A stretch of 64,000 nucleotides of DNA from Sphingomonadales bacterium (GTDB lineage: Bacteria; Pseudomonadota; Alphaproteobacteria; Sphingomonadales; Sphingomonadaceae): assembly GCA_027486415.1 (NCBI GenBank), contig JAIXPC010000011.1, forward strand, positions 355,411-419,410. Direction: 5' to 3'. Of the stretch, positions 437 to 18,933 are shown piece by piece. Below the pieces are notes generated by a model. It saw only the letters and a program-made list of their open reading frames with translations. It ran no database searches and was not told the DNA's origin. Positions within the stretch are counted from its first letter, which is position 1. Every line of letters begins with the position of its first letter. Made by a program: the position numbers and the translations under genes.

Positions 437-922
437 ATGAACGATGCTGAACCTTTCGACGCCTTCGACTGGAAGATTCTCGCCCTGCTGCAGGGCAATG
501 CCGAGCTGTCGGCCACCCAGATCGGGGAGCGGATCGGCCTGTCGCAATCCCCGGTGTCGCGCCGGATCGCGCGGCTGAAGGCGCAGGGCTATGTGCGGCG
601 CACGGTGGCGCTGCTTGATCGGCACAAGTTGGGGCTGTCAGCGCAGATCTTCGCGCAGGTGAAGCTTTCGGCGCATGGGCGCACCCATCTCGAGGAGTTC
701 ACCGCCGCGATCCGCGATTTTCCCGAAGTGCTGGAATGCCACGTGCTGATGGGATCGGTGGATTTCCTGCTGCGCGTGGTGGCGAAGGATATCGGCGAAT
801 ATGAACGCTTCTTCTTCGAGAAATTGTCGCGCGTGCCGGGCATCCAGGAAGTGACGTCCACGGTGGCGCTGTCGGAAATCAAGTCCACGACGAGCCTGCC
901 TCTCCACTCTGCCAGCGGCTGA
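437..922 (+). CDS. Lrp/AsnC family transcriptional regulator
   Basis: A 161-residue protein with the standard family architecture and length. The N-terminal AsnC-type helix-turn-helix covers about residues 5-60 (FDWKILALLQGNAELSATQI, then GLSQSPVSRRIARL as recognition helix), followed by a RAM ligand-sensing domain (about 65-150). Members sense amino acids and act as dimers or octamers, controlling amino-acid catabolism or transport. It lies 76 bases upstream of an M19 dipeptidase gene that begins a peptide-degradation run, and is divergent from a small hypothetical gene. Control of one or both neighbours is plausible. The effector cannot be read from sequence. Confidence 0.9.
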   Translation: MNDAEPFDAFDWKILALLQGNAELSATQIGERIGLSQSPVSRRIARLKAQGYVRRTVALLDRHKLGLSAQIFAQVKLSAHGRTHLEEFTAAIRDFPEVLECHVLMGSVDFLLRVVAKDIGEYERFFFEKLSRVPGIQEVTSTVALSEIKSTTSLPLHSASG

Positions 923-932
923 CCCCGCAGCG

Positions 933-977
933 TTGACCGTCTCCGTTTGGGCTTGTATCGTCCTGATCAGAAAAAAC
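933..977 (+). promoter_or_regulatory. Promoter and candidate operator of the M19/S12 operon
   Basis: A sigma70-like promoter is visible: TTGACC (933-938), a 17-base spacer and TATCGT (956-961). Immediately downstream is CCTGATCAGAAAAAA (962-976), which contains the palindrome CTGATCAG (963-970). The block TATCGTCCTGATCNGAAAA (956-974) recurs at 13071-13088 in front of the dgcN operon, which marks it as a shared regulatory site. Its position over the probable transcription start suggests repression, but this is inference. Confidence 0.5.
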
Positions 978-998
978 GGCAGGCGGGGAGGCTGGCCA

Positions 999-2159
999 GT
1001 GCAGATTGATCGCAGGACGATGCTGGGGGCTGCGGTTGCAGCGGTGGCAGCCCCCGTTGTGGCGAAGGCAAAGCTGGCGGCACCGGCCATTGCGAAGGCC
1101 AAGGTGCCGGTCAGCCCGTTTTCGGGCAAGGCCTACAGCCCGCGCGCCATCACGCTGGTGCGCGAGAGCGTGGTGGTCGACATGCTGGCGCCGATCAAGA
1201 TCGAGTTCAGCCCCGGTTTCTACAGCAAGCCCCTGACCGAGAAGGACGCCGCCGATTTCCGCAGCAGCGGCATCAATGCCATCCACCACGCCGTCGGGCT
1301 GGGCGGCACCGATGCCTATACGCAGGCAATGGAATTCTTTGCCGTGTGGGGCAATTTCGTCGCCCGCAACAGCCATGTGCTGACCGGGGTCGGCAGCTTT
1401 GCCGACATCCTGCGCGCCAAGCAGGATGGCAAGGTGGCGGTGATCATGGGCCTGCAGAATGCCGATCATTTCCGCCGCCCGGCCGATGTGCAGACCTTCT
1501 ACGACCTCGGCCAGCGCTGCGCCCAGTTGACCTATAATTCGCAGAACCGCATCGGATCGGGCTCCACCGACCGGATCGACGGCGGCATCAGCGATTTCGG
1601 CGCAGCCATCATCGAGGCGATGAACAAGGCCGGCATGCTGATCGACGTGTCGCACAGCGGTGATCGCACCACGCTCGATGCCATCCAGCTTTCAAAGAAG
1701 CCGATCGCCATCACCCACAGCAACTGCCGCGCGCTGGTCGATCATCCGCGCGTGAAGCGGGACGAGGCAATCAAGGCGCTGGGGGCCAACGGCGGCGTGA
1801 TGGGCATCACCGGGGTCAGGATGTTCGTGAAGAAGACCGATCCCACGACCATCGCCGACGTCGTCGATCATATCGATCATGTCGTGAAGCTGATCGGCAT
1901 CGATCATGTCGGCATCGGGACGGACAGCGACCTCAATGGCTATGACGACACCACGCCCGAAACCAACAAGATGCTGCGCGGTGCCTACAAGGACAGTTAT
2001 GCTTTTCGCGAAAAGATCGATGTCGACGGCTTTGATCACCCGCTGAAGATGTATGACCTGACCGAGGAGCTGATCCGGCGCGGCTATTCCGATGCCAACA
2101 TCAAGGCAGTGCTGGGCGGCAATTTCCAGCGCCTGCTCACCTCCACCTGGGGCGGCTGA
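999..2159 (+). CDS. Exported M19-family (membrane dipeptidase-like) protein lacking several metal ligands
   Basis: I place the start at GTG 999, preceded by GGGAG (986-990). The product then begins with DRRTMLG and an Ala-rich hydrophobic stretch, a likely Tat signal. The 386-residue protein follows the M19 renal-dipeptidase fold, a family that cleaves dipeptides, often with a D residue at the C-terminal position. The two late metal histidines are present: VSH (H219) and ITHS (H240). The usual first-strand HxD is replaced by L63-A-P65 in VVDMLAP, and the usual bridging Glu appears as Gln153 in MGLQNAD. It may therefore be a divergent subfamily with different metal use, or inactive. It is first in a run with two S12 hydrolases. 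Confidence 0.85.
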   Translation: MQIDRRTMLGAAVAAVAAPVVAKAKLAAPAIAKAKVPVSPFSGKAYSPRAITLVRESVVVDMLAPIKIEFSPGFYSKPLTEKDAADFRSSGINAIHHAVGLGGTDAYTQAMEFFAVWGNFVARNSHVLTGVGSFADILRAKQDGKVAVIMGLQNADHFRRPADVQTFYDLGQRCAQLTYNSQNRIGSGSTDRIDGGISDFGAAIIEAMNKAGMLIDVSHSGDRTTLDAIQLSKKPIAITHSNCRALVDHPRVKRDEAIKALGANGGVMGITGVRMFVKKTDPTTIADVVDHIDHVVKLIGIDHVGIGTDSDLNGYDDTTPETNKMLRGAYKDSYAFREKIDVDGFDHPLKMYDLTEELIRRGYSDANIKAVLGGNFQRLLTSTWGG

Positions 2160-2162
2160 GCC

Positions 2163-3629
2163 GTGACGCGCCCCTTGATCAGGGCCGCGCTGGCCGCACT
2201 GGCGCTGTCCACCGCGACGGCGCCGCTGCTGGCGGCACCTGCTGCCACCACGGTGGCGCCCGCCGAACTGGCCGGCTTTGTCGATGGCGTCGTGGCCGAG
2301 CAGATTGCCGCGCGCGAAGTGGCGGGCGCGGTGGTGACGGTGGTGCAGGGCGGCCGTGTCGTGCTCAACCGCGGCTATGGCCACCAGGATCTCGCCGCCG
2401 GCGTGCCGGTGGATGCGATGCGCAGCCTGTTCCGCCCCGGTTCGGTGTCGAAGCTGATCACCTGGACGGCGTTGATGCAGCAGGTGGAGGCCGGGCGCGT
2501 CGATCTGGATGCGGACGTGAACCGCTATCTGGATTTCGCCATCCCGCCATTCGACGGCAAGCCGATCCGGGTGCGCGACCTGTTCACCCACAGTGTCGGC
2601 ATGAGCGATGCGCCCGGCATCATCACCCGCGATCCGGCGAAATTGCTGCCCTTCCGCGACTGGATGAAGCGCAACATCCCGCGCCGCGTGTGGGCGCCGG
2701 GCACGGAGATCGCCTATTCCAACTATGGCGCGGCGCTGGCCGGCTATATCGTCGCGCAGGTGAGCGGCGAGGAATTTGATCCCTATGTCGAGCGCCACGT
2801 CCTGGGCCCGCTGAAGATGGCTGCGACCTCGTTCCGCGAGCCGCTGCCCCCGGCATTGGCGCCGCGCATGACCAAGGGCTATCGGCTTGAAAATGGACGC
2901 TTTGTCGAGCAGGCGCCAGAACTGATCAGCGCGATTGCGCCGGCGGGGTCCGCCACCAGCAGCGGGCCCGACATGGCGCGCTTCATCCGCATGCTGCTGG
3001 GGGGCGGCACGCTGGATGGCCAAAGGGTGCTGAAGCCGGAAAGCGTGCGCTTCCTGCTGTCGGATGGCCTGTCGAACGCGCCCGGCCTGCCCGGCATGGC
3101 GCATGGCTTCTTCGTGTTCCGCAACGCCGGGCCCACATCCGGACCGCGCCTGTTGGGCCACGGCGGCAACACGGCCGATTTCCACTCGATCCTGGTGCTG
3201 GCGCCGCAAGCCAATGCCGGCTTCTTCATCTCCATGACCGGCGGTGTTGGCAGTTATGGCGCGCGCACGGAACTGTCCGACCTGCTGGTGGCAAGACTGT
3301 TCCCCGATAGGCCAATGGCCCGCCAGCCGCGCCCGGCCGACGAGCCGCAGCCAGCCGGGGCCTTCCGCGCCAACCGCCGCAATTATGATGCGCCGGTTCG
3401 GCCCGAATATGATGCGACCGTCGCTGTCGCCGGCCCCGACGCGCTGACCGTCACCATGGAGGGCAAGGCCAGCCATTGGGAACGGGTCGGCCCGCTGATG
3501 TATGAGCGGGTCACCGCCACCGGGCGCACCGGCCCGTTCGAGCGGCTGCAGTTCGTCACCGGCCCCGCTGGCTGGCGACTGGTGTTCGGCACCCAGCCGC
3601 ACATGGCCTGGCACCGCGTCACTCCCTGA
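2163..3629 (+). CDS. Exported serine hydrolase, S12 beta-lactamase/DD-peptidase family
   Basis: GTG start at 2163, three bases after the M19 stop codon, so almost certainly co-transcribed and coupled. The 488-residue product has an N-terminal signal peptide (about residues 1-25). The S12 catalytic motifs are intact: SVSK (S94 and K97), YSN in the middle, and HGG late in the domain. A C-terminal beta-rich tail of about 100 residues follows. Relatives include D-aminopeptidases, esterases and carboxypeptidases, so the substrate cannot be assigned by motif. Between two peptidase genes and before a TonB receptor, a periplasmic role on D-residue peptides is likely. It resembles the hydrolase at 14108-16069 in LFRPGSVSKL and YSNY. 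Confidence 0.88.
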   Translation: MTRPLIRAALAALALSTATAPLLAAPAATTVAPAELAGFVDGVVAEQIAAREVAGAVVTVVQGGRVVLNRGYGHQDLAAGVPVDAMRSLFRPGSVSKLITWTALMQQVEAGRVDLDADVNRYLDFAIPPFDGKPIRVRDLFTHSVGMSDAPGIITRDPAKLLPFRDWMKRNIPRRVWAPGTEIAYSNYGAALAGYIVAQVSGEEFDPYVERHVLGPLKMAATSFREPLPPALAPRMTKGYRLENGRFVEQAPELISAIAPAGSATSSGPDMARFIRMLLGGGTLDGQRVLKPESVRFLLSDGLSNAPGLPGMAHGFFVFRNAGPTSGPRLLGHGGNTADFHSILVLAPQANAGFFISMTGGVGSYGARTELSDLLVARLFPDRPMARQPRPADEPQPAGAFRANRRNYDAPVRPEYDATVAVAGPDALTVTMEGKASHWERVGPLMYERVTATGRTGPFERLQFVTGPAGWRLVFGTQPHMAWHRVTP

Positions 3630-5714: not shown

Positions 5715-8024
5715 GTGAAGAAGCAAGTTCTGCTGGGGTCGGTGGGGATCGCGATGCTGCTGGCAGGTGCGCCGGCGCTGGCTGCCGATGCCGCCGAGGA
5801 AACGGCCACCACGGAAATCATCGTGACGGCCCAGCGCCGGCAGCAGACGATGATCGAGGTGCCGCAATCGGTTTCGGTGGTGAACGGCGACGCGCTGCAG
5901 CGCCAGCAGGCCGCCAGCTTCCTCGATTATGCCGCGCTGATCCCCGGTTTCACCGTCACCCAGGCCAACCCCGGGGAATCCCGCCTGATCCTGCGCGGCG
6001 TCAACACCGGTTCGGTCGGTTCGACCGTGGCGGTGTATGTGGATGACGTGCCGTTCGGTTCCAGCGGCAGCCTTTCCAACGGCGGCGTGCTGGCCGGTGA
6101 TTTCGACACTGCCGATGTCGAACGGGTGGAAGTGCTGCGCGGCCCGCAGGGCACGCTTTACGGCTCCAACGCGCTGGGCGGCGTGCTGAAATATGTGACG
6201 GCCAAGCCCAAGCTGGGCACGGTGGAAGTCGCCGGCCGCATCGGCGTGGAGGACACCAAGGGCGGCGGCAGTGGCTGGCTGACCACGGGCGTTGTCAACC
6301 TGCCGCTGGGTGACAAGATCGCCGTGCGCGCCAGCGGCTATTACCGGTCAAACCCCGGCGTCGTCGATGCTGCCGGCCGCAATGCCACCGGCGTCGACAA
6401 GAACCAGAGCTATGGCGGCCGCGTGTCGGTGCTGTTCCAGCCGACCGACAATTTCTCGGCCCGCCTGTCGGCCCAGATGCAGAATATCCGCGTCGACAGC
6501 CCGGCGACCTTCACTGCCGATCCGTTGTCGGTGCAGCCGGTCAATCCGGTCACCGGCATCCCGACCGGCGGCCAGCGCGTCCGTTACGAACGCTACCCGG
6601 AACTGAACGACCTGGATTATCGCCTGTACAGCGGCGTGCTGGATTGGGATCTGGGCTTTGCGACCCTGACCTCGGTGACCAGCTATGCCGAGCAGAACCA
6701 GCGCCAGATCAGCGATGTCAGCACCAACGCAGCGCGCAACACCGCGCAGGCGGTCTATGGCGGCACGCCGCCGACCACCGTTGGCCTGTTCTTCCAGAAC
6801 GATATCACCCTTGAAAAATTCACCCAGGAAGTGCGGCTGGCCTCGCCGGATGACGGTGCGTTCGAATGGCTGATCGGTGGCTATTACACCAAGGAAGACA
6901 GCGCGCTGAAGCAGCGGTTTGCGCCGTTCACGCTGGCCACGCAGGCGATCATTCCGCCCGCCGGCACCTTCGGCCCGTTCACCTTCACCCAGTTCGTGAC
7001 GGCCGGCATCACCGCCAAGTACGAGGAAATCGCCGTGTTCGGCAGCGGCACGCTGCACGTGTCGGACCGCTTCGACATCACGGCGGGCGGCCGCTACAGC
7101 CACAACAACCAGTCGTCGCTGCAGTCGGTGATCCAGCTTGGCAACGGCAGTCCGCAGAGCGGCAGGTCGGGCGAAGGCGTGTTCACCTGGTCGGTGGCGC
7201 CGCGCTTTGAAGTCAGCGACAATTTCGCGATCTATGCCCGCGCGGCCAAGGGTTATCGCCCCGGTGGCCCGAACTTCATCCCGCCCAACGCGCCGGCCAA
7301 TTTCCCGACCGAGTTCGGTGCCGATACCATCGTCAGCTATGAAGTGGGCGTCCACTACCAGAGCAGCGATCGCACGCTCACCCTGGATGCCGCTGCCTAC
7401 ACGCTGGATTGGGACAATGTGCTGATCACGTCGACCGTCACCACGGCGGCCGGCCCGGTGGGCGTCAACAGCAATGGCCGTCGCGCCCGCAGCCAGGGCT
7501 TTGAAGCCAGCGCCACGCTGCGTCCCACCAAGGGCCTCAGCATCGGCCTGAATGGCGCCTTCACCGATGCCAAGCTGCGTGATGACACCGTCCCGCCGGG
7601 CGGTGGCCTCAACCTGACCGGCGGTCTGGCCGGCGATCAGCTGCCCTATTCGCCGCGGCTTTCGGGCACGGTCACCGCCGATTACGAATGGTCGGTGGGC
7701 GATGGCGCCATGGCCTATGTGGGGGCCAGCGCGCGTATGATGGGCGATCAGACCGGGGGCTTCAACGCCGCCTATCGCGCCGCGTTCAACCGCCGCATCC
7801 AGATCGACAGCTATACCGTGGTCGATGCCCGCGCCGGCATTGATTTCGGCACGTTCAACATCTCGGTCTATGCCCGCAACCTGTTCAACTCCTATGGCGT
7901 GGTCGCTGCCGGTGAATATCCGTTCGCGGTGCCGGCTGCCATCGGTGGCACTGGCCTGCCGCTGATGACCGCCAGCACCATCCGCCCGCGTGTTCTGGGC
8001 GTGACGCTGGGGGCACGTTTCTGA
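5715..8024 (+). CDS. TonB-dependent outer-membrane receptor
   Basis: GTG 5715, with an AGAGGGGG ribosome-binding site, gives a signal peptide ending near AGAPALAAD. The 769-residue protein begins with a TonB-box-like TTEIIVTAQRR, then the plug domain (VPQSVSVVNGD through VERVEVLRGPQGTLYGSNALGG) and a 22-strand-type barrel ending in the aromatic C terminus GARF. Such receptors import scarce substrates using TonB-ExbBD energy, and many in sphingomonads take up oligomers. Because it follows three exported peptidase-type enzymes, a peptide or D-amino-acid-containing ligand is a reasonable guess. No FecR/sigma or SusD partner is adjacent. Confidence 0.93.
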   Translation: MKKQVLLGSVGIAMLLAGAPALAADAAEETATTEIIVTAQRRQQTMIEVPQSVSVVNGDALQRQQAASFLDYAALIPGFTVTQANPGESRLILRGVNTGSVGSTVAVYVDDVPFGSSGSLSNGGVLAGDFDTADVERVEVLRGPQGTLYGSNALGGVLKYVTAKPKLGTVEVAGRIGVEDTKGGGSGWLTTGVVNLPLGDKIAVRASGYYRSNPGVVDAAGRNATGVDKNQSYGGRVSVLFQPTDNFSARLSAQMQNIRVDSPATFTADPLSVQPVNPVTGIPTGGQRVRYERYPELNDLDYRLYSGVLDWDLGFATLTSVTSYAEQNQRQISDVSTNAARNTAQAVYGGTPPTTVGLFFQNDITLEKFTQEVRLASPDDGAFEWLIGGYYTKEDSALKQRFAPFTLATQAIIPPAGTFGPFTFTQFVTAGITAKYEEIAVFGSGTLHVSDRFDITAGGRYSHNNQSSLQSVIQLGNGSPQSGRSGEGVFTWSVAPRFEVSDNFAIYARAAKGYRPGGPNFIPPNAPANFPTEFGADTIVSYEVGVHYQSSDRTLTLDAAAYTLDWDNVLITSTVTTAAGPVGVNSNGRRARSQGFEASATLRPTKGLSIGLNGAFTDAKLRDDTVPPGGGLNLTGGLAGDQLPYSPRLSGTVTADYEWSVGDGAMAYVGASARMMGDQTGGFNAAYRAAFNRRIQIDSYTVVDARAGIDFGTFNISVYARNLFNSYGVVAAGEYPFAVPAAIGGTGLPLMTASTIRPRVLGVTLGARF

Positions 8025-8120: not shown

Positions 8121-9281
8121 TCAGTTCTGCGCGGCCTCGACGATGCGGAGCACGTTGCCGCCCCACATCTTGGCCAGATCGGCGTCGCTGTAACCGGCGG
8201 CGCGCAGGCGTTCCGTCACCTTGGGCAGGGCCGCGATGTCCTCGATGCCCTTGAGGCCGCCACCGCCATCCCAATCGGCGCCAAAGCAGATGTGATCGAC
8301 GCCGGCCACCGCGATCGCGCGCAGCACCATCGTCATGTAGGCTTCGAAATCGGCCGCCCACATCGGCTCGCTCTTGTCGAGCGCGCGCCATTTCGCGACC
8401 ATGTCAGCCTGCTGCGCCGGGGTCAGCCGGTCGCTGTGCTCATACTGGCCGAACACTTCGGCGCGGGCCGGCGTCATGTTCATCGGCGACATGAAGATGG
8501 TGGAAATGCACATGGCGCCGCCCTTGGCCGCCAGCTGCTTCAGCCGGCCTTCGTCAAGGTTGCGCGGGTGATCGAACGTCGACCGCAGGCTGGAGTGGGA
8601 GAGGATGATCGGCCTGGTCGACAGCGCCAGCATACGATCGAAGGCGGCATCAGAAGCGTGGCTGGCGTCGATGACCATGCCCAGCCGGTTCATCTCCTGC
8701 ACCCACGCCTTGCCGAGCGGGCTGAGCCCGCCCCATTTCGGGGTGTCGGTGGCGCTGTCGGCGAACTGGTTGTTGGCCGAATGCACCGGGCTGGCCAGCC
8801 TGACCCCGCGACGGTGAAACTCCGCCAGCAGCGACAGGTCTTCGCCCAGCGCATAGCTGTTTTCCATCGACTTGAAGGCGATCAGCGTGCCAGCCTTGTC
8901 GAGCCGACGCGCATCCGCCGCGGTCAGCGCCGGCCTGATGGCCTTGCTGTTGGCGGCGATGGTGCGATCGATCAGGTCTGACCGGCCGCGCGCGAAGGCG
9001 AGCGCATCGGCATAGCCCTTGGCCGACAATGGCCCCTGTTCGGTGTAGATGGCGAAGAAGCCGCCATCCAGCGCGCCATCCTGCATCCGCGGGATGTCGA
9101 GCTGGGAGATGTCGGTGTCGTAGCTGTGGCGCGCGGCAAAGTCCCAGCCCGGCCGGGCAAAGCTGATCCCGGTATCAAGATGGGTGTCGAGCGTCAGGAA
9201 GCTGCTGTGCGGAGCGGGCGCCGCAGCGGCCGCACTGGCCAGCAGCAGGGCCGGGAACAGGGCGGGGAGCAAGCGCCTCAT
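8121..9281 (-). CDS. Exported membrane dipeptidase, peptidase family M19
   Basis: A 386-residue protein with a signal peptide (MRRLLPALFPALLLASAAAAA). The metal site is intact, unlike the paralogue at 999: HxD as H34 and D36 in DTHLDT, a Glu in FKSMENSYAL, and histidines in DASHASD and LSHSS. M19 enzymes are dizinc dipeptidases, and bacterial members commonly prefer L-Xaa-D-Xaa dipeptides. Its ATG overlaps the stop of the upstream S12 gene by four bases (ATGA), making it the last gene of the dgcN operon. In that context it may release D-glutamate or another D residue in the periplasm for uptake. Confidence 0.93.
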   Translation of the reverse strand: MRRLLPALFPALLLASAAAAAPAPHSSFLTLDTHLDTGISFARPGWDFAARHSYDTDISQLDIPRMQDGALDGGFFAIYTEQGPLSAKGYADALAFARGRSDLIDRTIAANSKAIRPALTAADARRLDKAGTLIAFKSMENSYALGEDLSLLAEFHRRGVRLASPVHSANNQFADSATDTPKWGGLSPLGKAWVQEMNRLGMVIDASHASDAAFDRMLALSTRPIILSHSSLRSTFDHPRNLDEGRLKQLAAKGGAMCISTIFMSPMNMTPARAEVFGQYEHSDRLTPAQQADMVAKWRALDKSEPMWAADFEAYMTMVLRAIAVAGVDHICFGADWDGGGGLKGIEDIAALPKVTERLRAAGYSDADLAKMWGGNVLRIVEAAQN

Positions 9282-10858: not shown

Positions 10859-11976
10859 GGCAAAGGCTCCGGTTTGAGCAGGCGATAGACGCCGATGGTG
10901 AGCAACGGCACGAGAAAGACGGCCAGGAACAGCCAGGCGAGGAAACGATAGCCCTGCGCGATCAGATCGACGAGGCCGACTTCGACCGCGACCAGCATGC
11001 AGCCGGCAAGGATGATGCTGCCGCTCAGCAGCCGGCCCTTCAGGCCCGGGGCCGCCCGTCCGCGCGCCACCAGCGCGCCGGCAATGCGTTCGTTGATGGC
11101 GTGGACGGCACCGACGCCGCTTTCCCACAGCGCGGCAAAGATCATCACCTGGAACAACAGGCCCAGCCACGGCAGCGCAATGGCGCCCAACAGCACCTCG
11201 GACGGCAACGCCGCCGATCCGATCGCGGGGTAGAACGCCAGCATGGCGGTGAAGAACAGCAGCGCAGGCAGCATGGCCAGCGGCCCGGCGATCGCGCCGG
11301 CAATCATCGCGTCGCGCCGGCTTCCGAGGTGGCGCAGAACGGGAAGCACCACCACCGCGCCGACGATGTTGTAGGCGGCATAGGTGACGCCGCCTTCCAG
11401 CCAGCCGGGCTTCACCGCCGGCTGCATGGCAAGGCCGGCGGAAATGCCGTCACCCAGCCGGACAAAGGCGATCAGGATGAAGATGATGTAGGTGGCGTAG
11501 ATGAGGAAGCTGGCATAGCGGAACAGTTCTTCCACCGCCGCTTCGCCGGGCGCGCTGGCGACGAGGATGGCCACGGCCAGTGCCAGCGTGCCGGCAACCG
11601 GCGGCCAGCCGAAGGTGGCAGCGCCGATGGCCCCCGCCGCCGCGCCGAACACGGCGAGGATCAGCACGACGAACACCAGATAGGCGATTTCGAACAGCGG
11701 CCACGCCGGCCCGAGCAGTTTCTGGAAGAAGCTGCGATAATCCAGCGCCTGCCATTGGTGGGCCAGCGCAAAGCTGATGGCGGCGACCACGCTCCAGATC
11801 AGCATGGCGAGGCCCATGGCGATGAGGCCGCCAATGGGCCCGGCCGGCACGAAGAATTCCGCCAGTTCGCGGCCGGTGGCATAGCCGCCACCGATGATCA
11901 CTGCCTTCAGGGCGAAGCCCGGCAGCAGGTAACGCTGGAACCAGCTGCCCTTCGTGCCGGGCGCGGAAGCGCTCAT
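10855..11976 (-). CDS. YkvI-like multi-pass membrane protein, probable amino-acid transporter
   Basis: A 373-residue protein with about ten hydrophobic segments, beginning GFALKAVIIGGGYATGRELAEFF. The glycine-rich first helix and overall layout match the YkvI family, related to APC/LeuT-fold transporters. The ATG overlaps the dgcN stop by four bases (ATGA), and its own stop overlaps the next start. Being fixed between the D-glutamate-type enzyme gene and two exported hydrolases, it is the best candidate for the inner-membrane importer of the released D-amino acid or peptide. That substrate is inferred from context only; YkvI proteins are poorly characterised. Confidence 0.75.
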   Translation of the reverse strand: MSASAPGTKGSWFQRYLLPGFALKAVIIGGGYATGRELAEFFVPAGPIGGLIAMGLAMLIWSVVAAISFALAHQWQALDYRSFFQKLLGPAWPLFEIAYLVFVVLILAVFGAAAGAIGAATFGWPPVAGTLALAVAILVASAPGEAAVEELFRYASFLIYATYIIFILIAFVRLGDGISAGLAMQPAVKPGWLEGGVTYAAYNIVGAVVVLPVLRHLGSRRDAMIAGAIAGPLAMLPALLFFTAMLAFYPAIGSAALPSEVLLGAIALPWLGLLFQVMIFAALWESGVGAVHAINERIAGALVARGRAAPGLKGRLLSGSIILAGCMLVAVEVGLVDLIAQGYRFLAWLFLAVFLVPLLTIGVYRLLKPEPLP

Positions 11977-13010
11977 GCCAGGCAGTTGTCCACCAGCGCG
12001 TCGAAGGCCGGGCCACCGCGGATGGGATCAGCGACCGGCAGGCCCAGCCGCAGCCGTTCGGCGGCCATCACCGCTTCTGCCGCGCCCTCGTTCAGGGCAA
12101 CGGTGTTGAGGCTGACCCCGCCACAGCGGATGGCCGGATTGGTGCGACGGCCCAGGCGTATCGTCATGTCGATCACCTCTTCGATGGCCGGCAGCGCATA
12201 GCCATCAAGGCCCAGCATATGGGTGCGGGTGGGATCGTGGCAGACGACGAAAACATCGGGCTGGCTGCCGTGCAGCAGGCCCAGTGAGACGGCGGCATAG
12301 GCCGGGTTGAACAGGGAACCCTGGCCTTCGATCACATCCCAGTGATCCGGCGCGGCGTCAGGGCTTAGGATCTCGGCGGCACCGGCTTCGAAATCCGAAA
12401 CGACGGCGTCCATCGGGATGCCGCCGCCGGCGATCAGGATGCCGGTCTGGCCGCTGGCACGGAAATCGGCGGCAAGGCCGCGCGCCACGAAGGCGCGGTG
12501 CAGGGCAAGTGCGGTGTATTTCTTGCCCAGCGCGCAATCGGTGCCAACAGTGAGCAGGCGCTTCCCGCTGCGTTTGCGCCCGTTGCCGATCGGGATGCCA
12601 GCGGGCGGCGTGCGGATGTTGATGAGGCGCCGGCCGGTGCGGGCGGCGGCTTCGGCCAGTTCCGGGATGGCTTCCAGGCGGGCGTGCATGCCGCTGATGA
12701 TGTCGAGCCCGGCTTCGAGCGCGGCGACCAGCGCGCTGATCCACGATACCGGGATGAAGCCACCCTGATTGGCAACGCCGATGACGATGGCGCGGGCACC
12801 GGCGGCGTGGGCGGCGGCGGGGTCCATCGTCGGCAGGCCGGCGCTCACCGTGCAGCCGGGAACGCCGAATTCGGCAACACAACGGTCACGGGCCCAGTCG
12901 ACGAGGCCAAAGGCGGTCTTGGCATAGCCGGCTTCGGTGGTGTCGCCCAGAAACAGCAGATAAGGCTGGGGCAGGGCCAGTCCTTCCACCAGGCGTCCCA
13001 TCGCATTCAT
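11973..13010 (-). CDS. dgcN: DUF1611 family protein, probable D-glutamate N-acetyltransferase DgcN
   Basis: ATG 13010 is chosen because AGGAG sits 8 bases upstream. The 345-residue protein has a DUF1611 N-terminal region and a P-loop-like GTDCALGKK (residues 156-164), both typical of the family. DgcN members acetylate D-glutamate to N-acetyl-D-glutamate, which DgcA then racemises to N-acetyl-L-glutamate. The co-occurrence here with a DgcA-type epimerase gene immediately upstream supports this over a generic DUF1611 call. It is the first gene of a four-gene operon with ATGA overlaps. The deacetylase that would finish the pathway is not in the window. Strict substrate specificity is unproven from sequence. 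Confidence 0.8.
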   Translation of the reverse strand: MNAMGRLVEGLALPQPYLLFLGDTTEAGYAKTAFGLVDWARDRCVAEFGVPGCTVSAGLPTMDPAAAHAAGARAIVIGVANQGGFIPVSWISALVAALEAGLDIISGMHARLEAIPELAEAAARTGRRLINIRTPPAGIPIGNGRKRSGKRLLTVGTDCALGKKYTALALHRAFVARGLAADFRASGQTGILIAGGGIPMDAVVSDFEAGAAEILSPDAAPDHWDVIEGQGSLFNPAYAAVSLGLLHGSQPDVFVVCHDPTRTHMLGLDGYALPAIEEVIDMTIRLGRRTNPAIRCGGVSLNTVALNEGAAEAVMAAERLRLGLPVADPIRGGPAFDALVDNCLA

Positions 13011-13066: not shown

Positions 13067-13105
13067 CGCTATCGTCCTGATCGGAAAATTGTCAACCTGA
13101 TCAGG
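13067..13105 (-). promoter_or_regulatory. Promoter and operator of the dgcN operon
   Basis: Read on the minus strand, TTGACAATTTTCCGATCAGG occupies 13095-13076. TTGACA is a perfect -35, and a weak -10 (TAGCGT or ATAGCG) lies at about 13072-13066. On the plus strand the block reads TATCGTCCTGATCGGAAAA from 13070, nearly identical to the site at 956-974. A palindrome CCTGATCAGG lies at 13096-13105, just upstream of the -35 and overlapping the end of dgcA. The operator-like core falls inside the promoter spacer, a position usual for repressors. Confidence 0.6.
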
Positions 13106-14108
13106 ATCGGTTCGCGAATTCCCATACGGAGGGCGCGCAATCGATGTGCCCGCGCGCATAGGTGACGCATGGGGTGCGGTCACGGGCAAGAAAGGTCGGC
13201 CCGTCGAGATCGACGACATCGCAAAACTGGCCGACAATGAAGCTGGGCGCCATCGCCAGGCTGGTGCCCATCATGTTGCCGACCATCACGCCCAACCCCA
13301 GTTCACGGGCGCGGCGCGCGATGGCCAGCGCTTCGGTGAGGCCGCCGCACTTGTCGAGCTTGATGTTGACGAGATCAAAGCGCCCGACCAGCCCATCGGT
13401 ATCGGCAAGGCACAGGGCGCTTTCGTCGGCGACGAAGGGCAGGGGGCGGACAAGGCCATCCAGCGACGCTTCATCGCCGCGCCTGAGCGGCTGTTCGAGC
13501 TGGGCGATATCGTGAGCCAGAAGCACCGGCAGCAAGCGTTCCAGCGTGGCGCGGTCATAGCCCTGGTTGGCATCGACGCCGATCCAGGCCGTGGGCCGCG
13601 CGGCGCGGATGGCGGCCACCCGCGCGCAATCGAGATCGAGATCGCCCGTCAGCTTGACCTTGACCGGAGCGAGCGGATCGATGGCCGTGGCGGCCGCTGC
13701 CATCGCTTCGGGTGCTTCGGCACCCAGGGTGAGCGTGGAGAGCAGCGGGCGCGGCGGATCGATGCCGGCCAGTTGCCAGACAGGCCTGCCGGTCTGCTGC
13801 GCCTCCAGCGCCCACAGCGCGCAATCGATCGCGTTGCGCGCGCCGCCCGGTGGCAGCAGCGATTGCAGGTCGGCGCGCGTGGCACCGGCCTCGATCGCGG
13901 CCCGCACGCTCTCGGCCTCAGCCAGCATGTGGGCGGCGTCGTCGTTCAGATAATAGACCCCGGCCGCTTCGCCGCAGCCGCTGTGTTCACCGTGTGTGAT
14001 CCGCGCCAGCAGCACGGCGGTTTCGGCAAACACATGGCCCGAAATGCGGAAGGGCTTGTGATAGGGAAAATGCTCGATGCGAAGGTCGAGCGATCGCGTT
14101 GTCGCCAT
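13101..14108 (-). CDS. dgcA: Dipeptide epimerase-family enzyme, probable N-acetyl-D-glutamate racemase DgcA
   Basis: The ATG at 14108 shares one base with the upstream S12 stop (TGATG). The 335-residue protein belongs to the enolase superfamily, dipeptide-epimerase branch: KVK (K150 and K152) is the first acid/base motif, the metal ligands are D179 (in GVDANQG), E205 (in LEQPL) and D228 (in ADES), and K250 (in NIKLDKCGG) is the second base. Family members epimerise L-Ala-D/L-Glu, while DgcA acts on N-acetyl-glutamate. With dgcN next downstream, the D-glutamate catabolic role is favoured, but recycling of the murein dipeptide L-Ala-D-Glu remains possible. Confidence 0.85.
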   Translation of the reverse strand: MATTRSLDLRIEHFPYHKPFRISGHVFAETAVLLARITHGEHSGCGEAAGVYYLNDDAAHMLAEAESVRAAIEAGATRADLQSLLPPGGARNAIDCALWALEAQQTGRPVWQLAGIDPPRPLLSTLTLGAEAPEAMAAAATAIDPLAPVKVKLTGDLDLDCARVAAIRAARPTAWIGVDANQGYDRATLERLLPVLLAHDIAQLEQPLRRGDEASLDGLVRPLPFVADESALCLADTDGLVGRFDLVNIKLDKCGGLTEALAIARRARELGLGVMVGNMMGTSLAMAPSFIVGQFCDVVDLDGPTFLARDRTPCVTYARGHIDCAPSVWEFANRS

Positions 14109-16069
14109 CAGTACACCAGCGAGAAGCCATAGAGGTTGAAGGCGAAGGTGAGCCAGGCGCAGACCAGCCCTGACGCCAGCAGCAGCAACGCGCCCAGTCG
14201 CATCGTCCACGCCCTGCCTTGGGACAGGGTGAGGGCGAAATGCCAGCCGGCGGTGAGCACGAGGCCGATGCTGGCAGCAGGGGTGAGCGCACGCAGCGTC
14301 TGGATCAGCCAGTCGAGCGGGCCGCCGATGCTGCCGATATCGGCCGAGAAGGCGACGACGAGGCCGAGCCAGCCGGCAACCGCGATCACCACCAGCCACG
14401 CTGCCAGCCGTGACAGCCGCCACGCTGTCAGCGCGCTGCCGCTGAGGGCGAATGTGGCGCCGAACGTGCGGCGCACCAGCGCCCGCACCGGCCAGCCCAG
14501 GGCGGCCAGCAGGACGAGGGCGAGAGCGCCACCCGCGGCAGGCAGCAGCCAGGCCGCATTGGTGCCGGCCGGGGCTGGTTCATAGACCATGAACGGCGAG
14601 ATGGCATCGGTGCTCATCCTGACGACGCGGCCATCCTTGACGACGGCAGCGATGCGCTCGCCGCTGTTGCGATCGGTCCACACGAACGGCGCGGTTTCCA
14701 CCCAGTCGGGCGTGCCCGCATTCAACGCCTCCAGCGCCGGCAGGGCGATCTTGCCATCCTTGTCGACGACCACCTTGGCCTGGCCGATGAGGCCCAGCAG
14801 GCTGAGGAAGTTGGTGAAGCTGCCGCGGCTGCTGACGTAGGTGCCAGCCAGCATCCGGGCGTGCTTGCGGGCGGTGGCGGGATCAACGGCTGCCACTGGC
14901 GGTCGGCCGGGCAGGTAGCGATCGGCAAAGCCGTGGAACAGGGCCGAACGCACGGCCGACGCCGCGCCCGCCGCACCGCCGCTGTTCACCGAGATGTAGA
15001 TGCCGACATCGGCATCGGGGAACAGCCACAGATAGGAATGGAATTGCGTGGTGTCGCCGCCATGACCGATGGCGCGGTGGCCATTGGTCCATTGTTCATA
15101 GAAGCCCAGTGCCATGCGGTTGAGCGGGCCGACTCCGGCTGCGTTGGTGTCGTGCATCTGGCGCGCGGTTTCGGGCTTCAGCAGGCCGGCACCATCATTG
15201 AGATGGGCCATCATGAAGCGGCCCATGTCGGCGCCGCTGGCGGCAAGACTGCCGGCCGGCCAGGGCAGCACGATCTCATAGGGTTGCGGATCCCTGGAGC
15301 CATCCTTGTAGCCCCGCGACATCAGCGGTGCGAGGCCGGCGGGCAGGGGCTGGCGAAAGCTCGACCGTGTCATGCCGATGGGCGAGAAGATGTGCTTTTC
15401 GATATAGGCTTCCAGCGGTTCGCCGCTGACCCGCTCGACGATGTAGCCGGCGAGCGCCGTGGCATAGTTGGAATAGGCCGGCGTGGTGCCCGGCGCGAAC
15501 ACGCGGCTGGGCAGGGCGCGCTTCATCAGCACCGAAAGCGGCAGTGCAGCCTTGGGATCGGTACCGATCAGGTAGCGCACCGATTCCTCGAACCCGGCGG
15601 TGTGGGTGAGGATGTGGCGCAGGGTGATCGGCTTGCCGTCGAACGGCGGGATGGTGAAATCCAGATAGGCGTTGACGTCGCGATCCAGATCAAGCTTGCC
15701 GGCTTCGACCTGCTGCATCACCGCCGTCCAGGTGAACAGCTTTGACACCGAACCGGGCCGGAACAGCGTGGCATCGGGATCGACAGGCGCGCGTTTGGCG
15801 ACATCGGCAAAGCCATAGCCCTTGGCCAGCAAGGGGCCATTGCCGCGCACGACGACGACAACCGCGCCGGGGATATGCCCCTTGGCGAGGGCATAGGGCA
15901 TGAAGCCGTCCAGCCAGGCTTCAAGGTCGCGGGCATCGATGGCCGGGGTGGCCGCAGGCACGGCTGCCGCTGCCACCGCAGGTGCCTGCACGGATTGCGC
16001 TGTCGCGGCCGGCGACCCCACGATCAGCAGCGCCAGAGCCGCCACCCATCCCTTCAGCAGCCTGTGCAT
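14108..16069 (-). CDS. S12 serine hydrolase with C-terminal transmembrane domain
   Basis: I choose ATG 16069, which gives a clean signal peptide (MHRLLKGWVAALALLIVGS); a G-rich ribosome-binding site lies 10 bases upstream. The 653-residue protein has SVSK (S107 and K110), YSN (in YSNYATALAG) and HGG (in GHGGDTTQFHS). After the catalytic domain come about four membrane helices (roughly residues 495-650), which should anchor it in the inner membrane with the enzyme facing the periplasm. It is the first gene of the operon with dgcA, under the double-motif promoter at 16156-16199. The closest sibling in the window is the hydrolase at 2163. Confidence 0.88.
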   Translation of the reverse strand: MHRLLKGWVAALALLIVGSPAATAQSVQAPAVAAAAVPAATPAIDARDLEAWLDGFMPYALAKGHIPGAVVVVVRGNGPLLAKGYGFADVAKRAPVDPDATLFRPGSVSKLFTWTAVMQQVEAGKLDLDRDVNAYLDFTIPPFDGKPITLRHILTHTAGFEESVRYLIGTDPKAALPLSVLMKRALPSRVFAPGTTPAYSNYATALAGYIVERVSGEPLEAYIEKHIFSPIGMTRSSFRQPLPAGLAPLMSRGYKDGSRDPQPYEIVLPWPAGSLAASGADMGRFMMAHLNDGAGLLKPETARQMHDTNAAGVGPLNRMALGFYEQWTNGHRAIGHGGDTTQFHSYLWLFPDADVGIYISVNSGGAAGAASAVRSALFHGFADRYLPGRPPVAAVDPATARKHARMLAGTYVSSRGSFTNFLSLLGLIGQAKVVVDKDGKIALPALEALNAGTPDWVETAPFVWTDRNSGERIAAVVKDGRVVRMSTDAISPFMVYEPAPAGTNAAWLLPAAGGALALVLLAALGWPVRALVRRTFGATFALSGSALTAWRLSRLAAWLVVIAVAGWLGLVVAFSADIGSIGGPLDWLIQTLRALTPAASIGLVLTAGWHFALTLSQGRAWTMRLGALLLLASGLVCAWLTFAFNLYGFSLVY

Positions 16070-16155: not shown

Positions 16156-16199
16156 ATCAGTCTGATTGGAAATAATGAGCCTGATTGGAAAATTGTCAA
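16156..16199 (-). promoter_or_regulatory. Promoter with two operator-like repeats between S12-dgcA and the XRE-cupin gene
   Basis: On the minus strand TTGACAATTTTCCAATCAGG (16199-16180) matches the dgcN promoter element at 19 of 20 positions. TTGACA is the -35 and CATTAT/ATTATT (about 16177-16171) the -10. A second copy of the core on the plus strand, TCTGATTGGAAATAA, lies at 16161-16175 and forms the palindrome ATCAG-T-CTGAT (16156-16166). The region lies directly upstream of the divergent XRE-cupin regulator gene (GTG 16219), the natural arrangement for an autoregulated repressor. Confidence 0.65.
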
Positions 16200-16218
16200 A
16201 CGGCGTTTGGGGGTACAG

Positions 16219-16842
16219 GTGAACGATCAATCGGTTCCGCCAACGCTGGGCACGGTGCTGAAGGGCATCCGATCCCGGCATGGCTGGACGCTCAAGGAGA
16301 TGAGCGACCGCTGCGGCATCCCGGTCTCGACCCTTTCAAAGGTCGAGCATGACCGGCTGACGCTGTCGTATGACAAGCTGCAGCAACTCAGCCGCCGCCT
16401 GAAGATCCGCATGTCGGACCTGTTCGCCGACGGGCCGGACGACAGTGCGCCCAGGGTGACCGGCCGGCGCAGCATCGGATCCATCGACCGGGCGGTGCGC
16501 GTTGTCACCGACAATTATGATTATTCCTATCTGTGCACCGATCTGCGCCGCAAGCGCATGATCCCGATCCTCACCCGCATCCGCGCCCAGAGCGCCAGCG
16601 AATTTGGCGACCTGGTTCGCCACCAGGGCGAGGAATTCATCTACGTGCTGGAAGGCCGCATCGAGGTGCATTCGGAATTCTATGACCCGGTGGTGCTGGA
16701 AACCGGGCAGGGCATCTATCTCGACAGTTCGATGGGCCACGCCTACGTGGTCGGCGAAGGCTGCAAGGAAGCCCTGGTGCTGGGCGTCTGCTCAAGCGCC
16801 GACGAGAATCTGATGGATTCGCTGATGAACTTGCACAACTGA
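16219..16842 (+). CDS. XRE-family transcriptional regulator with C-terminal cupin domain
   Basis: The reading frame is open further upstream, but the homologous sequence starts near GTG 16219, so I use that. The 207-residue protein has an N-terminal XRE helix-turn-helix (about 10-68: LGTVLKGIRSRHGWTLKEMS, CGIPVSTLSKVEH) and a cupin domain (about 115-200, with GEEFIYVLEG and GHAYVVGEG). This two-domain type senses a small metabolite in the cupin pocket and controls nearby amino-acid or peptide catabolic genes. It is divergent from the S12-dgcA operon across a region with repeated motif copies, and is the prime candidate to bind the shared element in this locus. Confidence 0.9.
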   Translation: MNDQSVPPTLGTVLKGIRSRHGWTLKEMSDRCGIPVSTLSKVEHDRLTLSYDKLQQLSRRLKIRMSDLFADGPDDSAPRVTGRRSIGSIDRAVRVVTDNYDYSYLCTDLRRKRMIPILTRIRAQSASEFGDLVRHQGEEFIYVLEGRIEVHSEFYDPVVLETGQGIYLDSSMGHAYVVGEGCKEALVLGVCSSADENLMDSLMNLHN

Positions 16843-16860
16843 GCCGGCGTCAGGCCGGCT
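16842..16860. terminator. Short hairpin between convergent stops
   Basis: AGCCGGC (16842-16848) pairs with GCCGGCT (16854-16860) around loop GTCAG. It overlaps the 3' ends of the XRE-cupin and cupin genes, whose stops are only seven bases apart. There is little T tract (TTGTT), so termination efficiency is uncertain. Confidence 0.4.
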
Positions 16861-17182
16861 TGTTGATCGGCATGGTGAACGTCGCCGGGTCCATCGAAAA
16901 GCCGAACAAGGCCTTGAAGCCGTCATGGGCTTCCTGGTGGACCCAGCCGGCGCTGGCCACCACCCGGTCGCCCGGCCGCACCTCGTGACGGTGACCGGTG
17001 GCGACATCGGTGAGGGTGAGGCCGCCTTCCAGCACAAAGAAGCGGGTGTGGAATTCGTGGAAGTGCGGCGCATTGCGTTCGGCCGGCACGTCGATCAGCA
17101 TGGCGTGAAAGCCGGCCGCCGCGACCTCCGCGCGCGCCTCGCTCTCGGTGGTGAAATGCCGGTGGTCAACGCTGTAGCGCAT
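16850..17182 (-). CDS. Small single-domain cupin protein
   Basis: Start ATG 17182 has GGGG upstream; a TTG seven codons earlier overlapping the lipoxygenase stop is the alternative. The 110-residue protein is one beta-barrel cupin: motif 1 is visible as HFHEFHTRFFVLEGG with metal-type His residues and Glu, followed by GDRVVASAGWVHQ. Such proteins bind a metal and a small ligand, or act as dioxygenase or isomerase domains. It is 17 bases downstream of the lipoxygenase-family gene and very probably co-transcribed with it. Substrate unknown. Confidence 0.75.
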   Translation of the reverse strand: MRYSVDHRHFTTESEARAEVAAAGFHAMLIDVPAERNAPHFHEFHTRFFVLEGGLTLTDVATGHRHEVRPGDRVVASAGWVHQEAHDGFKALFGFSMDPATFTMPINKPA

Positions 17183-17199
17183 GGCCAATCCCCCGTCTC

Positions 17200-18933
17200 T
17201 CAATACTGCACCCCGCAGGCCATCACATCCAGCGGGACGACATGCAGCTTGGGATTCTCGGCTTTCAGCGTCGCATCCAGTGTCTTCAGATCGGCGTGGA
17301 AGCGGCTGACAAGCGTGGACAATTCCGGCGTGTCAAAGCCCAGGTAGGCACGGTTGCCATCGCCGCTGGCCGCCGGCTCGATCTCGGCCAGGCACAGGCT
17401 GTTGTGCGGTTTGTAGAACAGCTGGTCGGCAAGATGGCTCGACACATTGTCCATCGGCCAGCTCAAGGGCGTGTTGTCGATCAGATGTTCGAACCAGCGC
17501 TCCAGTTTCGACACGAGGCCGAGCTGGCTGCTGTCGACCGTGACGGCTTCACGCACGTAATCGCGTGTCATTGGCGGCTTCACGCGCAGGATGAACGGCA
17601 CGGGCATCGCCTGGCGATACAGGGTGCCGCTGGCATCATGCATGCTTTCGTACATCTCGTGCAGCGATTCATGGTCGGATGAATGCATCACCGCGCCGTT
17701 CCAGATGAAATGCGCCAGGAGATCGGCGAGCAGGTCCTTGTTCGGGGTGCCATCGCCGGCCAGGAGATCCTTGCCGGTGGGATGGCCGGGCAGATAGGCC
17801 GCGATGGCATCGGCCCAGAACGCTGCTTCCTGCCATTCCTGCGCCGACAGGTGATCGACAACGCCACGGGTGAAGGCACGGATCGGATCATAATAGCGGC
17901 GCAGGAACTCGCCATAATGGGACGGAATGTCGGCCGGGCGCGGGCTGAAACGATACGGGCGATAGCTGCTGTTGGGCTGATCGAAATAGGGATCTGCATC
18001 CGGCGACCTGTCGGGATTGGTCGTCGCGTAGAAGTCCGATCCATACCAGCAGAAGGGCAGAAGTTTCCTGACCTCCTCTCCTTTCGCCACGAACGGGCAC
18101 CACGGATACCAGGTGTTGGGATTGATGATCGATCGCTGGCCTTCCAGCACGGCATTGTTCACGGGGAGCGACAGCCACATGTGCGGCTGCAGCAGGCGCA
18201 GGATGATGTTGGATTTGGGCAGCACGCTTTTCGTCAGCGCGTTGATCGTGTCGGCCGGGAAGTGCACGCCGGGATGATCGATCAGGTTGATGCGGTGGAT
18301 GGCGCCCTGCAGCACGAAGTAGCGCGCCACCGTCCATGCCTCGCCATCCCCCGGGCGAAACACCTCCGACGGGTTCCAGTGCTTGCCGTCGAACACCCAC
18401 AGGGCAATGGCCACGACCTCGTAGTTGAAGCCCTTGTCATCCTTTGGCCGGCGCACGAGCGCCACTGACGCTGCAGAGGCTTCGCCCGGGTAGAGCGATT
18501 TCACCACCCGCATGCAGGAAAAATCGGATTTCAGATATTCATGGCGGTCTTCGTCGACGATCTCGCTGTGAAACGTCTTTTTATCGGTCTCGTCCAGAGG
18601 CGAGAGATATTTGCTGTACAGCCCCTCGCACAGCAGATGGGTGAAATCATCGTCGTGGAGATCGGGATAATCCGATCGGTGCTCCACCGCGGTGGCGAGC
18701 GCGGCGGCCGTCGAGGCAACGCCGAACTGCAGGATGCTGTTCTCATAATATTTGCCGATGAAGCGCTGCCAGTCGGACTGTTCGGCGGCAGGGATCGGGT
18801 CGATGGCCGGGGCAAGGCCATTGTAATGCAGCTTGTTCTTGATCGGCCACGGGGTCATGTCGTCGGGGTAGAGGAAGGCGGATGGCGGCAGCCCCGGAAA
18901 CCGCGCGTTCTGAGGAGAGATGTCGCTGGCCAT
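17200..18933 (-). CDS. Lipoxygenase-family protein
   Basis: ATG 18933 starts a 577-residue protein without a signal peptide. The iron-site pattern of lipoxygenases can be followed: a His-rich helix (H213, H220, H224), the family signature RLLQPHMWLSLPVNNAVLEG (compare LLxPHxxxxxxIN), and IWNGAVMHSSDH, where H417 and H421 align with the later His and the His/Asn ligand. Classical lipoxygenases end in Ile, whose carboxylate binds iron; this one ends in Tyr577. There is no plant-type PLAT domain. The reaction, if conserved, is dioxygenation of polyunsaturated fatty acids, though typical bacteria lack these. It pairs with the downstream cupin gene. Family call fairly firm, substrate unknown. Confidence 0.72.
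   Translation of the reverse strand: MASDISPQNARFPGLPPSAFLYPDDMTPWPIKNKLHYNGLAPAIDPIPAAEQSDWQRFIGKYYENSILQFGVASTAAALATAVEHRSDYPDLHDDDFTHLLCEGLYSKYLSPLDETDKKTFHSEIVDEDRHEYLKSDFSCMRVVKSLYPGEASAASVALVRRPKDDKGFNYEVVAIALWVFDGKHWNPSEVFRPGDGEAWTVARYFVLQGAIHRINLIDHPGVHFPADTINALTKSVLPKSNIILRLLQPHMWLSLPVNNAVLEGQRSIINPNTWYPWCPFVAKGEEVRKLLPFCWYGSDFYATTNPDRSPDADPYFDQPNSSYRPYRFSPRPADIPSHYGEFLRRYYDPIRAFTRGVVDHLSAQEWQEAAFWADAIAAYLPGHPTGKDLLAGDGTPNKDLLADLLAHFIWNGAVMHSSDHESLHEMYESMHDASGTLYRQAMPVPFILRVKPPMTRDYVREAVTVDSSQLGLVSKLERWFEHLIDNTPLSWPMDNVSSHLADQLFYKPHNSLCLAEIEPAASGDGNRAYLGFDTPELSTLVSRFHADLKTLDATLKAENPKLHVVPLDVMACGVQY

What the first reader, a model, noticed from the sequence alone, without database searches (positions are those of the whole stretch)
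437..18933. A D-amino-acid/peptide scavenging regulon with four S12 hydrolases and two M19 dipeptidases around dgcN-dgcA
Within about 18 kb there are four exported S12 serine hydrolases, two exported M19 proteins, a TonB receptor, a YkvI-like transporter, DgcN, DgcA and an XRE-cupin regulator, arranged in operons with shared promoter elements. DUF1611 (DgcN) and dipeptide-epimerase (DgcA) pairs are known to convert D-glutamate to N-acetyl-L-glutamate. The surrounding exported enzymes could release D-Glu or L-Xaa-D-Xaa dipeptides from peptidoglycan or other D-residue peptides. The set as a whole is not a pathway I know as described.
Basis: partly seen in the sequence, partly recalled or inferred. 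Interest (0 to 1): 0.8.

Follow-up and report, generated by a model that had tools for sequence, protein, structure and literature searches.

The report
Co-regulated D-peptide scavenging gene cluster
A set of bacterial genes that probably takes up and breaks down peptides containing mirror-image amino acids is conserved with a shared control signal in many related bacteria, and its two central enzymes look retuned away from D-glutamate, the substrate first proposed.

Summary
In detail: window 437-16842 carries Lrp, two M19 proteins, four exported S12 hydrolases, a TonB receptor, a YkvI-like transporter, DgcN, DgcA and an XRE-cupin regulator. It is a real unit: among 39 window-type loci from other genomes of the family, S12 genes lie nearby in 35, YkvI in 31, the regulator in 31, M19 in 25. 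It also occurs in Gammaproteobacteria (15 of 78 named loci). A conserved element (at most one mismatch), absent from 26 canonical control loci, precedes several cluster genes and suggests one regulon. The D-Glu reading is weakened. Canonical dgcN-dgcA pairs of the family sit apart, with LysR (24 of 26) and often a dicarboxylate symporter (16 of 26); both were found in 0 of the 39. DgcA lacks Arg24 (Gly in 90 of 92 window-type rows) and DgcN lacks Arg40 (Ala in 118 of 124), both usual in canonical rows. Best reading: a D-residue-peptide utilisation locus whose N-acetylation/racemisation pair acts on a non-acidic D-amino acid. Nothing was assayed. One M19 lacks canonical metal ligands; the ORF at 17200-18933 does not belong.

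The parts
437..922 (+). Lrp/AsnC-family regulator
   Evidence: PF01037 77.8 bits; a homologue lies in 6 of 39 window-type family loci
956..975 (+). operator-like element upstream of M19a, starting at the -10 of a predicted promoter (933-961)
999..2159 (+). M19a: exported M19-family protein lacking HxD and bridging Glu; Tat-like RR signal (start inferred)
   Evidence: PF01244 275.6 bits; ligand loss in 18 of 18 M19a rows; closest PDB chain 2i5g
2163..3629 (+). S12a: exported S12 serine hydrolase
   Evidence: PF00144 193.7 bits; SVSK/YSN/HGG and N-terminal hydrophobic segment
3651..5594 (+). S12b: exported S12 serine hydrolase with an N-terminal extension
   Evidence: PF00144 162.8 bits, residues 182-509; SNTK/YSN/HGG
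5715..8024 (+). TonB-dependent receptor (start inferred)
   Evidence: PF00593 and PF07715
8121..9281 (-). M19b: exported M19 dipeptidase, canonical ligands present
   Evidence: PF01244 280 bits; 399 bits to PDB 2rag dipeptidase
9278..10858 (-). S12c: exported S12 serine hydrolase with DUF3471 domain (start inferred)
   Evidence: PF00144 207.7 bits, PF11954 87.5 bits; STGK/YDN/HGG
10855..11976 (-). YkvI-like APC-fold transporter
   Evidence: AlphaFold2 mean pLDDT 90.4, pTM 0.87; best PDB matches 6f2g and 9h76 (BasC), TMq 0.77 and 0.73
11973..13010 (-). window-type DgcN (DUF1611), Ala at position 40
   Evidence: NF041892 447 bits, cut-off 480; position 40
13069..13097 (.). operator-like element upstream of dgcN
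   Evidence: shared motif; exact core 13076-13088
13101..14108 (-). window-type DgcA, Gly at position 24
   Evidence: NF042940 349.6 bits, cut-off 400; position 24
14108..16069 (-). S12d: exported S12 hydrolase with C-terminal hydrophobic segments (start inferred)
   Evidence: PF00144 212.4 bits; SVSK/YSN/HGG, three C-terminal hydrophobic segments
16156..16201 (.). divergent promoter/operator: two motif copies; TTGACA-16-CATTAT promoter-like site of the S12d-dgcA operon on the minus strand
   Evidence: element found in 59 of 68 equivalent gaps
16219..16842 (+). XRE-cupin regulator (GTG start inferred, downstream of the element; the open frame starts at 15982)
   Evidence: PF01381 34.1 bits, PF07883 34.8 bits; in 31 of 39 window-type and 0 of 26 canonical loci

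Best explanation
A regulon for using D-residue-containing peptides. A TonB receptor brings peptides into the periplasm (inferred). Exported S12 hydrolases and M19b there release D-amino acids or dipeptides (inferred from family). An APC-fold transporter carries the free amino acid inward (inferred from fold). DgcN acetylates the D-amino acid and DgcA converts the N-acetyl-D- into the N-acetyl-L-amino acid (inferred from the characterised pathway). A host deacylase then frees the L-amino acid (inferred; no candidate in the window's cluster). The XRE-cupin protein controls the operons through a conserved element that overlaps the S12d-dgcA promoter (element shown; binding inferred). The substrate of this DgcN-DgcA type is most likely a non-acidic D-amino acid, not D-Glu.
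For: Unit: 39 window-type loci against 26 canonical loci; 78 named loci; the five genes DgcN, DgcA, S12d, YkvI, XRE all present in 48, at least four in 62. Regulon: 59 of 68 divergent S12d/XRE gaps carry the 14-mer with at most 2 mismatches, 1.2 expected. With at most one mismatch: 54 sites in the 39 loci, 52 of them within -60 to 300 bases of a cluster-family gene start (M19a 12, TonB receptor families 6 and 4, DGCN 3 among them; one site can count for two genes); 98 sites in the 78 named loci, 93 so placed; 0 sites in 26 canonical loci. Substrate shift: DgcA position 24 is Gly in 90 of 92 window-type rows and Arg in 37 of 41 others; DgcN position 40 is Ala in 118 of 124 and Arg in 35 of 37; Ala/Gly or Arg/Arg together in 117 of 126 loci with one of each. 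1jpd (E. coli L-Ala-D/L-Glu epimerase) and 4gfi have Arg at the aligned position. Canonical loci carry LysR (24/26) and an SDF dicarboxylate symporter (16/26), window-type loci 0/39 for both. NCBIfam: canonical DgcN 495, 487, 494 bits (cut-off 480) and DgcA 410, 445, 398 (cut-off 400); window-type DgcN 447, 451, 419 and DgcA 350, 367, 328. D-residue theme: a D-aminoacylase/N-acyl-D-Glu-deacylase-like gene in 17 of 39 loci. A leucine-dehydrogenase-like gene (294 bits to 6acf, tested on one protein) with an Lrp gene in 11 of 78 named and 3 of 39 family loci. Transporter fold closest to BasC, titled asc/LAT transporter, in one entry with L-Ala.
Against: No substrate, binding or growth was measured. 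That Arg24 contacts the Glu side chain is recalled from work on B. subtilis YkfB; no held paper showed it. The role of DgcN Arg40 is unknown. The two Arg losses may go back to one or a few ancestral changes, so their linkage is not many independent events. Sequences from relatives were cut at tblastn ends and may lose some bits. The fold search does not tell substrates apart: its rank 4 is system xc- with glutamate (7p9u). 2 of 78 named loci do carry a distant (31%) symporter of the canonical type. The D-aminoacylase-like gene is also near canonical loci (22 of 26), and its best PDB match is an N-acyl-D-glutamate deacylase, which fits D-Glu as well. The leucine-dehydrogenase-like gene is in a minority of loci, and the window's genome shows only a 42.3-bit match over cut-off. 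10 of 39 window-type loci show no DgcA in the stretch. No aminoacylase for N-acetyl-L-Xaa was recognised among the recurrent ORFs, which were identified only in part; M20 genes were not sought in the loci.
Confidence: 0.5

Rival explanations
1. One reading: a D-glutamate pathway fed by exported hydrolases that release D-Glu or L-Ala-D-Glu; DgcN makes N-acetyl-D-Glu and DgcA makes N-acetyl-L-Glu, which enters arginine metabolism or is deacetylated.
For: Both enzymes score best on the DgcN and DgcA models. The product N-acetyl-L-Glu would need no special deacylase. The amidohydrolase of many loci is closest to an N-acyl-D-Glu deacylase. DgcN is described as key to racemisation of acidic D-amino acids and their amides (PMC12363236, passages).
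Against: Arg24 of DgcA and Arg40 of DgcN are lost; scores lie below cut-offs that canonical pairs reach or nearly reach; no LysR or dicarboxylate symporter in the 39 loci; ten genomes hold both types of locus, which suggests different jobs.
Confidence: 0.25
2. Handling of one particular class of D-residue natural products (cyclic or nonribosomal peptides, siderophores, beta-lactams), with the hydrolases opening them and the pair finishing the D-residue.
For: S12 and M19 enzymes can act on beta-lactams and modified peptides (recalled); TonB receptors found in the stretches vary, 23-66% identity to the window's; class A beta-lactamase-like or S9 genes lie in some loci; one locus is in Sphingosinicella microcystinivorans.
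Against: No single product is implied by the gene content. No homology search against the microcystin mlr genes was made.
Confidence: 0.15
3. Peptidoglycan-peptide recycling locus.
For: All four S12 proteins score best on the AmpH DD-carboxypeptidase model, though far below its cut-off.
Against: The genome has a second, separate DgcA-like enolase-superfamily gene that could serve murein recycling (C8:362140-363102). Patchy distribution (6 of 24 genomes of the genus have any DgcN match) does not fit a housekeeping role.
Confidence: 0.1

Closest known systems
DgcN-DgcA D-glutamate catabolism (N-acetylation then racemisation)
   Same: Same two enzyme families; best NCBIfam models NF041892 and NF042940
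   Different: Below both cut-offs; a usual Arg lost in each; different regulator and transporter; set among hydrolases
[quoted passage not shown]
   Same: Enolase-superfamily sequence; DLDGP motif and lysines align with 1jpd
   Different: Position 24 is Gly where 1jpd has Arg
M19 dipeptidases such as 2rag and 3id7
   Same: M19b matches 2rag over residues 18-385 of 386, 399 bits
   Different: M19a lacks HxD and the bridging Glu and is closest to 2i5g
TonB-linked utilisation loci such as polysaccharide utilisation loci (analogy, recalled)
   Same: Receptor, exported hydrolases, inner-membrane transporter, cytoplasmic enzymes, dedicated regulator, two or three loci in some genomes
   Different: Peptidase families and D-amino-acid enzymes in place of glycan enzymes; XRE-cupin regulator

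Membership tests
DgcN (NF041892 equivalog) | score at or above curated cut-off 480 | tested here: not met
   window 447, L034 451, L068 419 bits; canonical L098, L088, L102 reach 495, 487, 494
DgcN (NF041892 equivalog) | Arg at position 40 as in the canonical clade (role unknown) | tested here: not met
   Ala in window; 118 of 124 window-type rows Ala, 35 of 37 canonical rows Arg; 15 of 176 rows between the identity limits left out
DgcA (NF042940 equivalog) | score at or above curated cut-off 400 | tested here: not met
   window 349.6, L034 367, L068 328; canonical 410, 445 and 398, the last just short
DgcA (NF042940 equivalog) | Arg24, recalled as the side-chain carboxylate ligand in related epimerases | tested here: not met
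   Gly in window and in 90 of 92 other window-type rows; Arg in 37 of 41 others
DgcN-DgcA D-Glu pathway | D-Glu acetylation and N-acetyl-Glu racemisation | not testable with these tools
   needs enzyme assays
Dipeptide epimerase / enolase superfamily | catalytic Lys, metal ligands, DxD motif (roles recalled) | tested here: met
   K150, K152, D179, E205, D228, K250, D300, D302 invariant in 30 rows; alignment to 1jpd
M19 dipeptidase (M19b) | binuclear site: HxD, Glu, two His (recalled) | tested here: met
   THLD, SMENS, DASH and LSHS present and aligned with 2rag
M19 dipeptidase (M19a) | binuclear site: HxD, Glu, two His (recalled) | tested here: not met
   HxD and Glu replaced in 18 of 18 rows
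S12 serine hydrolases | SxxK, YxN, HxG motifs | tested here: met
   all four proteins
XRE-cupin regulon | regulator binds the conserved element | not testable with these tools
   element conserved; binding needs an in vitro test
Microcystin mlr cluster | mlrA and mlrC homologues | not tested
   no homology search against mlr genes was run

The most novel reading that the evidence does not exclude
A widespread family of D-peptide utilisation loci, shared between Alpha- and Gammaproteobacteria, each with its own outer-membrane receptor and hydrolase set, in which retuned DgcN and DgcA form a new catabolic route for neutral D-amino acids by N-acetylation and racemisation instead of oxidation, under one conserved XRE-cupin operator.
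Probability: 0.35. Interest if true: 0.75.

Novelty: new variant of a known kind. Interest (0 to 1): 0.55.

Why it matters
D-amino acids are counted among recalcitrant dissolved organic matter (PMC10845958 and PMC12363236, abstracts as listed). If the reading is right, it names a dedicated uptake and degradation system, present in several copies in some genomes, and a possible new route for non-acidic D-amino acids, with direct predictions: a receptor ligand, an operator, an inducer and two enzyme specificities. It also warns that the label 'D-Glu N-acetyltransferase' may be passed by homology to enzymes whose substrate differs.

Tried and rejected
Rejected: the ORF at 17200-18933 as part of the unit (no homologue in the loci searched; no Pfam, NCBIfam, PADLOC or PDB-sequence match). 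The 20 kb upstream as an extension: tblastn with the cluster proteins finds only a 26% TonB receptor there; its ORFs were named by eye only.

Led nowhere: a YkvI-based scan of genome contigs (43 pattern matches, none confirmed); a search for print support of Arg24; measuring where DgcN position 40 lies (no model coordinates were found in the box). Pairing of the two arms of a possible inverted repeat in the element was looked at by eye and is only suggestive.

Literature: searches show no description of this locus in their listings; most subscription papers are not held, so this is weak evidence of novelty. Seen: PMC12363236 and PMC10845958, passages; PMC13338154, passages and section 7; PMC5808125, passages; PMC3605383, a term search with no passage. 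PMC11747546, on a strain that hydrolyses D-residue peptides, was listed and not opened. The original DgcN-DgcA papers are recalled, not read.

Rows left out: the 78 family stretches leave out the window's own match, two near-threshold genomes and short fragment matches; 13 of the 78 fell between the two clades and were kept out of the counts; 15 of 176 DgcN rows were kept out of the position-40 count. The split for position 24 used a 58% DgcN identity limit, not the tree. The trees are quick ones with SH-aLRT alone (stands in for a careful search that did not finish). The probes were the window's own proteins, which favours window-type loci; LysR and the symporter were sought with canonical-locus probes. 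The family set (39) and the named set (78, the best of 465 confirmed stretches) share some genomes, so their counts must not be added; the 68 gaps hold some loci twice. The element was first seen in the window and the pattern then fitted to S12d/XRE gaps, so counts there are partly circular; the sites before M19a, receptors and dgcN are less so. The promoter scan by itself is not above chance (4 found, 2.7 expected).
Full report
What is there. Searches confirm the gene list: Lrp/AsnC, M19a, S12a, S12b and a TonB receptor on the plus strand; M19b, S12c, a YkvI-like transporter, DgcN, DgcA and S12d on the minus strand; and an XRE-cupin regulator divergent from S12d. All four S12 proteins keep SxxK, YxN and HGG and have N-terminal hydrophobic segments; S12d also has three C-terminal ones. 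M19b keeps the canonical ligands and matches PDB 2rag at 399 bits. M19a does not: HxD and the bridging Glu are replaced in all 18 M19a rows aligned. The transporter has no family match at E<=0.001, but its model (mean pLDDT 90.4) resembles BasC and other APC-fold transporters.

A real unit. A DgcN search found matches in 51 of 199 genomes of the family, two of them near threshold. I fetched 78 stretches of up to 20 kb. A quick tree splits DgcN into a window-type set (39 loci besides the window; SH-aLRT 97) and a canonical set (26 loci; 100), with 13 loci outside both. Window-type loci hold S12 genes in 35 of 39, YkvI in 31, XRE in 31, DgcA in 29, M19 in 25 and TonB receptors in 34; canonical loci hold them in 5, 0, 0, 26, 0 and 18 of 26. 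29 genomes besides the window's own have window-type loci, seven of these have two or three, and ten genomes have both types. Among 78 named loci (the best of 465 confirmed stretches), 48 hold all of DgcN, DgcA, S12d, YkvI and XRE, and 62 hold at least four; 15 of the 78 are from Gammaproteobacteria such as Lysobacter, Luteimonas, Rhodanobacter, Dyella and Steroidobacter. On a quick tree the gamma rows need three label changes; one origin is not ruled out. In a sample of 385 genomes of the class the best match outside the family (65%) has no cluster around it.

A shared cis element. A 13-base motif recurs upstream of M19a, upstream of dgcN and twice in the S12d/XRE gap; the assembly has three exact copies, all here. 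In the S12d/XRE gaps of related loci the element reads, by eye, GGGACATAATGATCCTGATTRGAAAATTGTCAAA. Read on the other strand it is a TTGACA-16-CATTAT promoter-like site for the S12d-dgcA operon; the scan lists this site in the window, though its total count is near chance. A 14-mer of it is present with at most two mismatches in 59 of 68 gaps against 1.2 expected, including Lysobacter, Luteimonas and Steroidobacter. With at most one mismatch, 52 of 54 sites in the 39 loci and 93 of 98 in the named loci lie close upstream of a cluster-family gene, and none occurs in the 26 canonical loci. This ties exported hydrolases, receptors and dgcN/dgcA to one control signal. That the XRE-cupin protein binds it is inferred.

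Not obviously D-glutamate. Canonical loci lie beside a LysR gene (24 of 26) and often an SDF dicarboxylate symporter (16 of 26); window-type family loci have neither (0 of 39 each), and of 78 named loci 0 have the LysR and 2 a distant symporter. Of three canonical pairs scanned, DgcN passes the NCBIfam cut-off in three and DgcA in two (the third 398 against 400); the three window-type pairs, the window included, fail both. DgcA Arg24, present in 1jpd and 4gfi and in 37 of 41 other rows, is Gly in 90 of 92 window-type rows; DgcN Arg40, Arg in 35 of 37 canonical rows, is Ala in 118 of 124. Both states go together in 117 of 126 loci. That Arg24 contacts the Glu side chain is recalled. Accessory genes are mixed evidence: a leucine-dehydrogenase-like gene with Lrp in 11 of 78 named loci points to hydrophobic amino acids, while the amidohydrolase in 17 of 39 loci, closest to an N-acyl-D-Glu deacylase, is also near 22 of 26 canonical loci.

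Mechanism. Shown: gene families, synteny, conserved element, residue changes. Inferred: uptake by the receptor, release of D-residues in the periplasm, transport by the APC-fold protein, N-acetylation and racemisation in the cytoplasm, deacylation by an enzyme outside the cluster (the assembly has 15 M20 matches, none on the window's contig), and control by the XRE-cupin protein. The weakest steps are the substrate and the deacylation.

Known or new. DgcN is described in print as key to racemisation of acidic D-amino acids and their amides (PMC12363236, passages). I found no description of this combined locus in the listings, within a library that lacks most subscription papers. I file it as a new variant of a known kind.

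Noticed in passing
window 17200-18933 (-): 577-aa ORF with no Pfam, NCBIfam, PADLOC or PDB-sequence match; by eye it recalls lipoxygenase-like His patterns, which no search supports.
   Followed up: partly
window 19029-22463 (-): 1144-aa TIR plus AAA-ATPase protein, 422 bits to the TOMM kinase/cyclase model (cut-off 705.75) and weak TIR hits in PADLOC.
   Followed up: partly
window 999-2159 (+) and 17 homologues: A conserved M19 subfamily without HxD and bridging Glu; its real chemistry is unknown.
   Followed up: partly
L076-L107 (canonical loci): Canonical dgcN-dgcA pairs in this family lie near a LysR gene, an SDF symporter and a D-aminoacylase-like amidohydrolase.
   Followed up: partly
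L074, L079, L085: Pairs between the clades that keep DgcN Arg40 but have Gly or Ser at DgcA position 24; they may show the order of change.
   Followed up: no
L213 (Sphingosinicella microcystinivorans): A window-type cluster in a species named for microcystin use; a link to the mlr genes was not tested.
   Followed up: no
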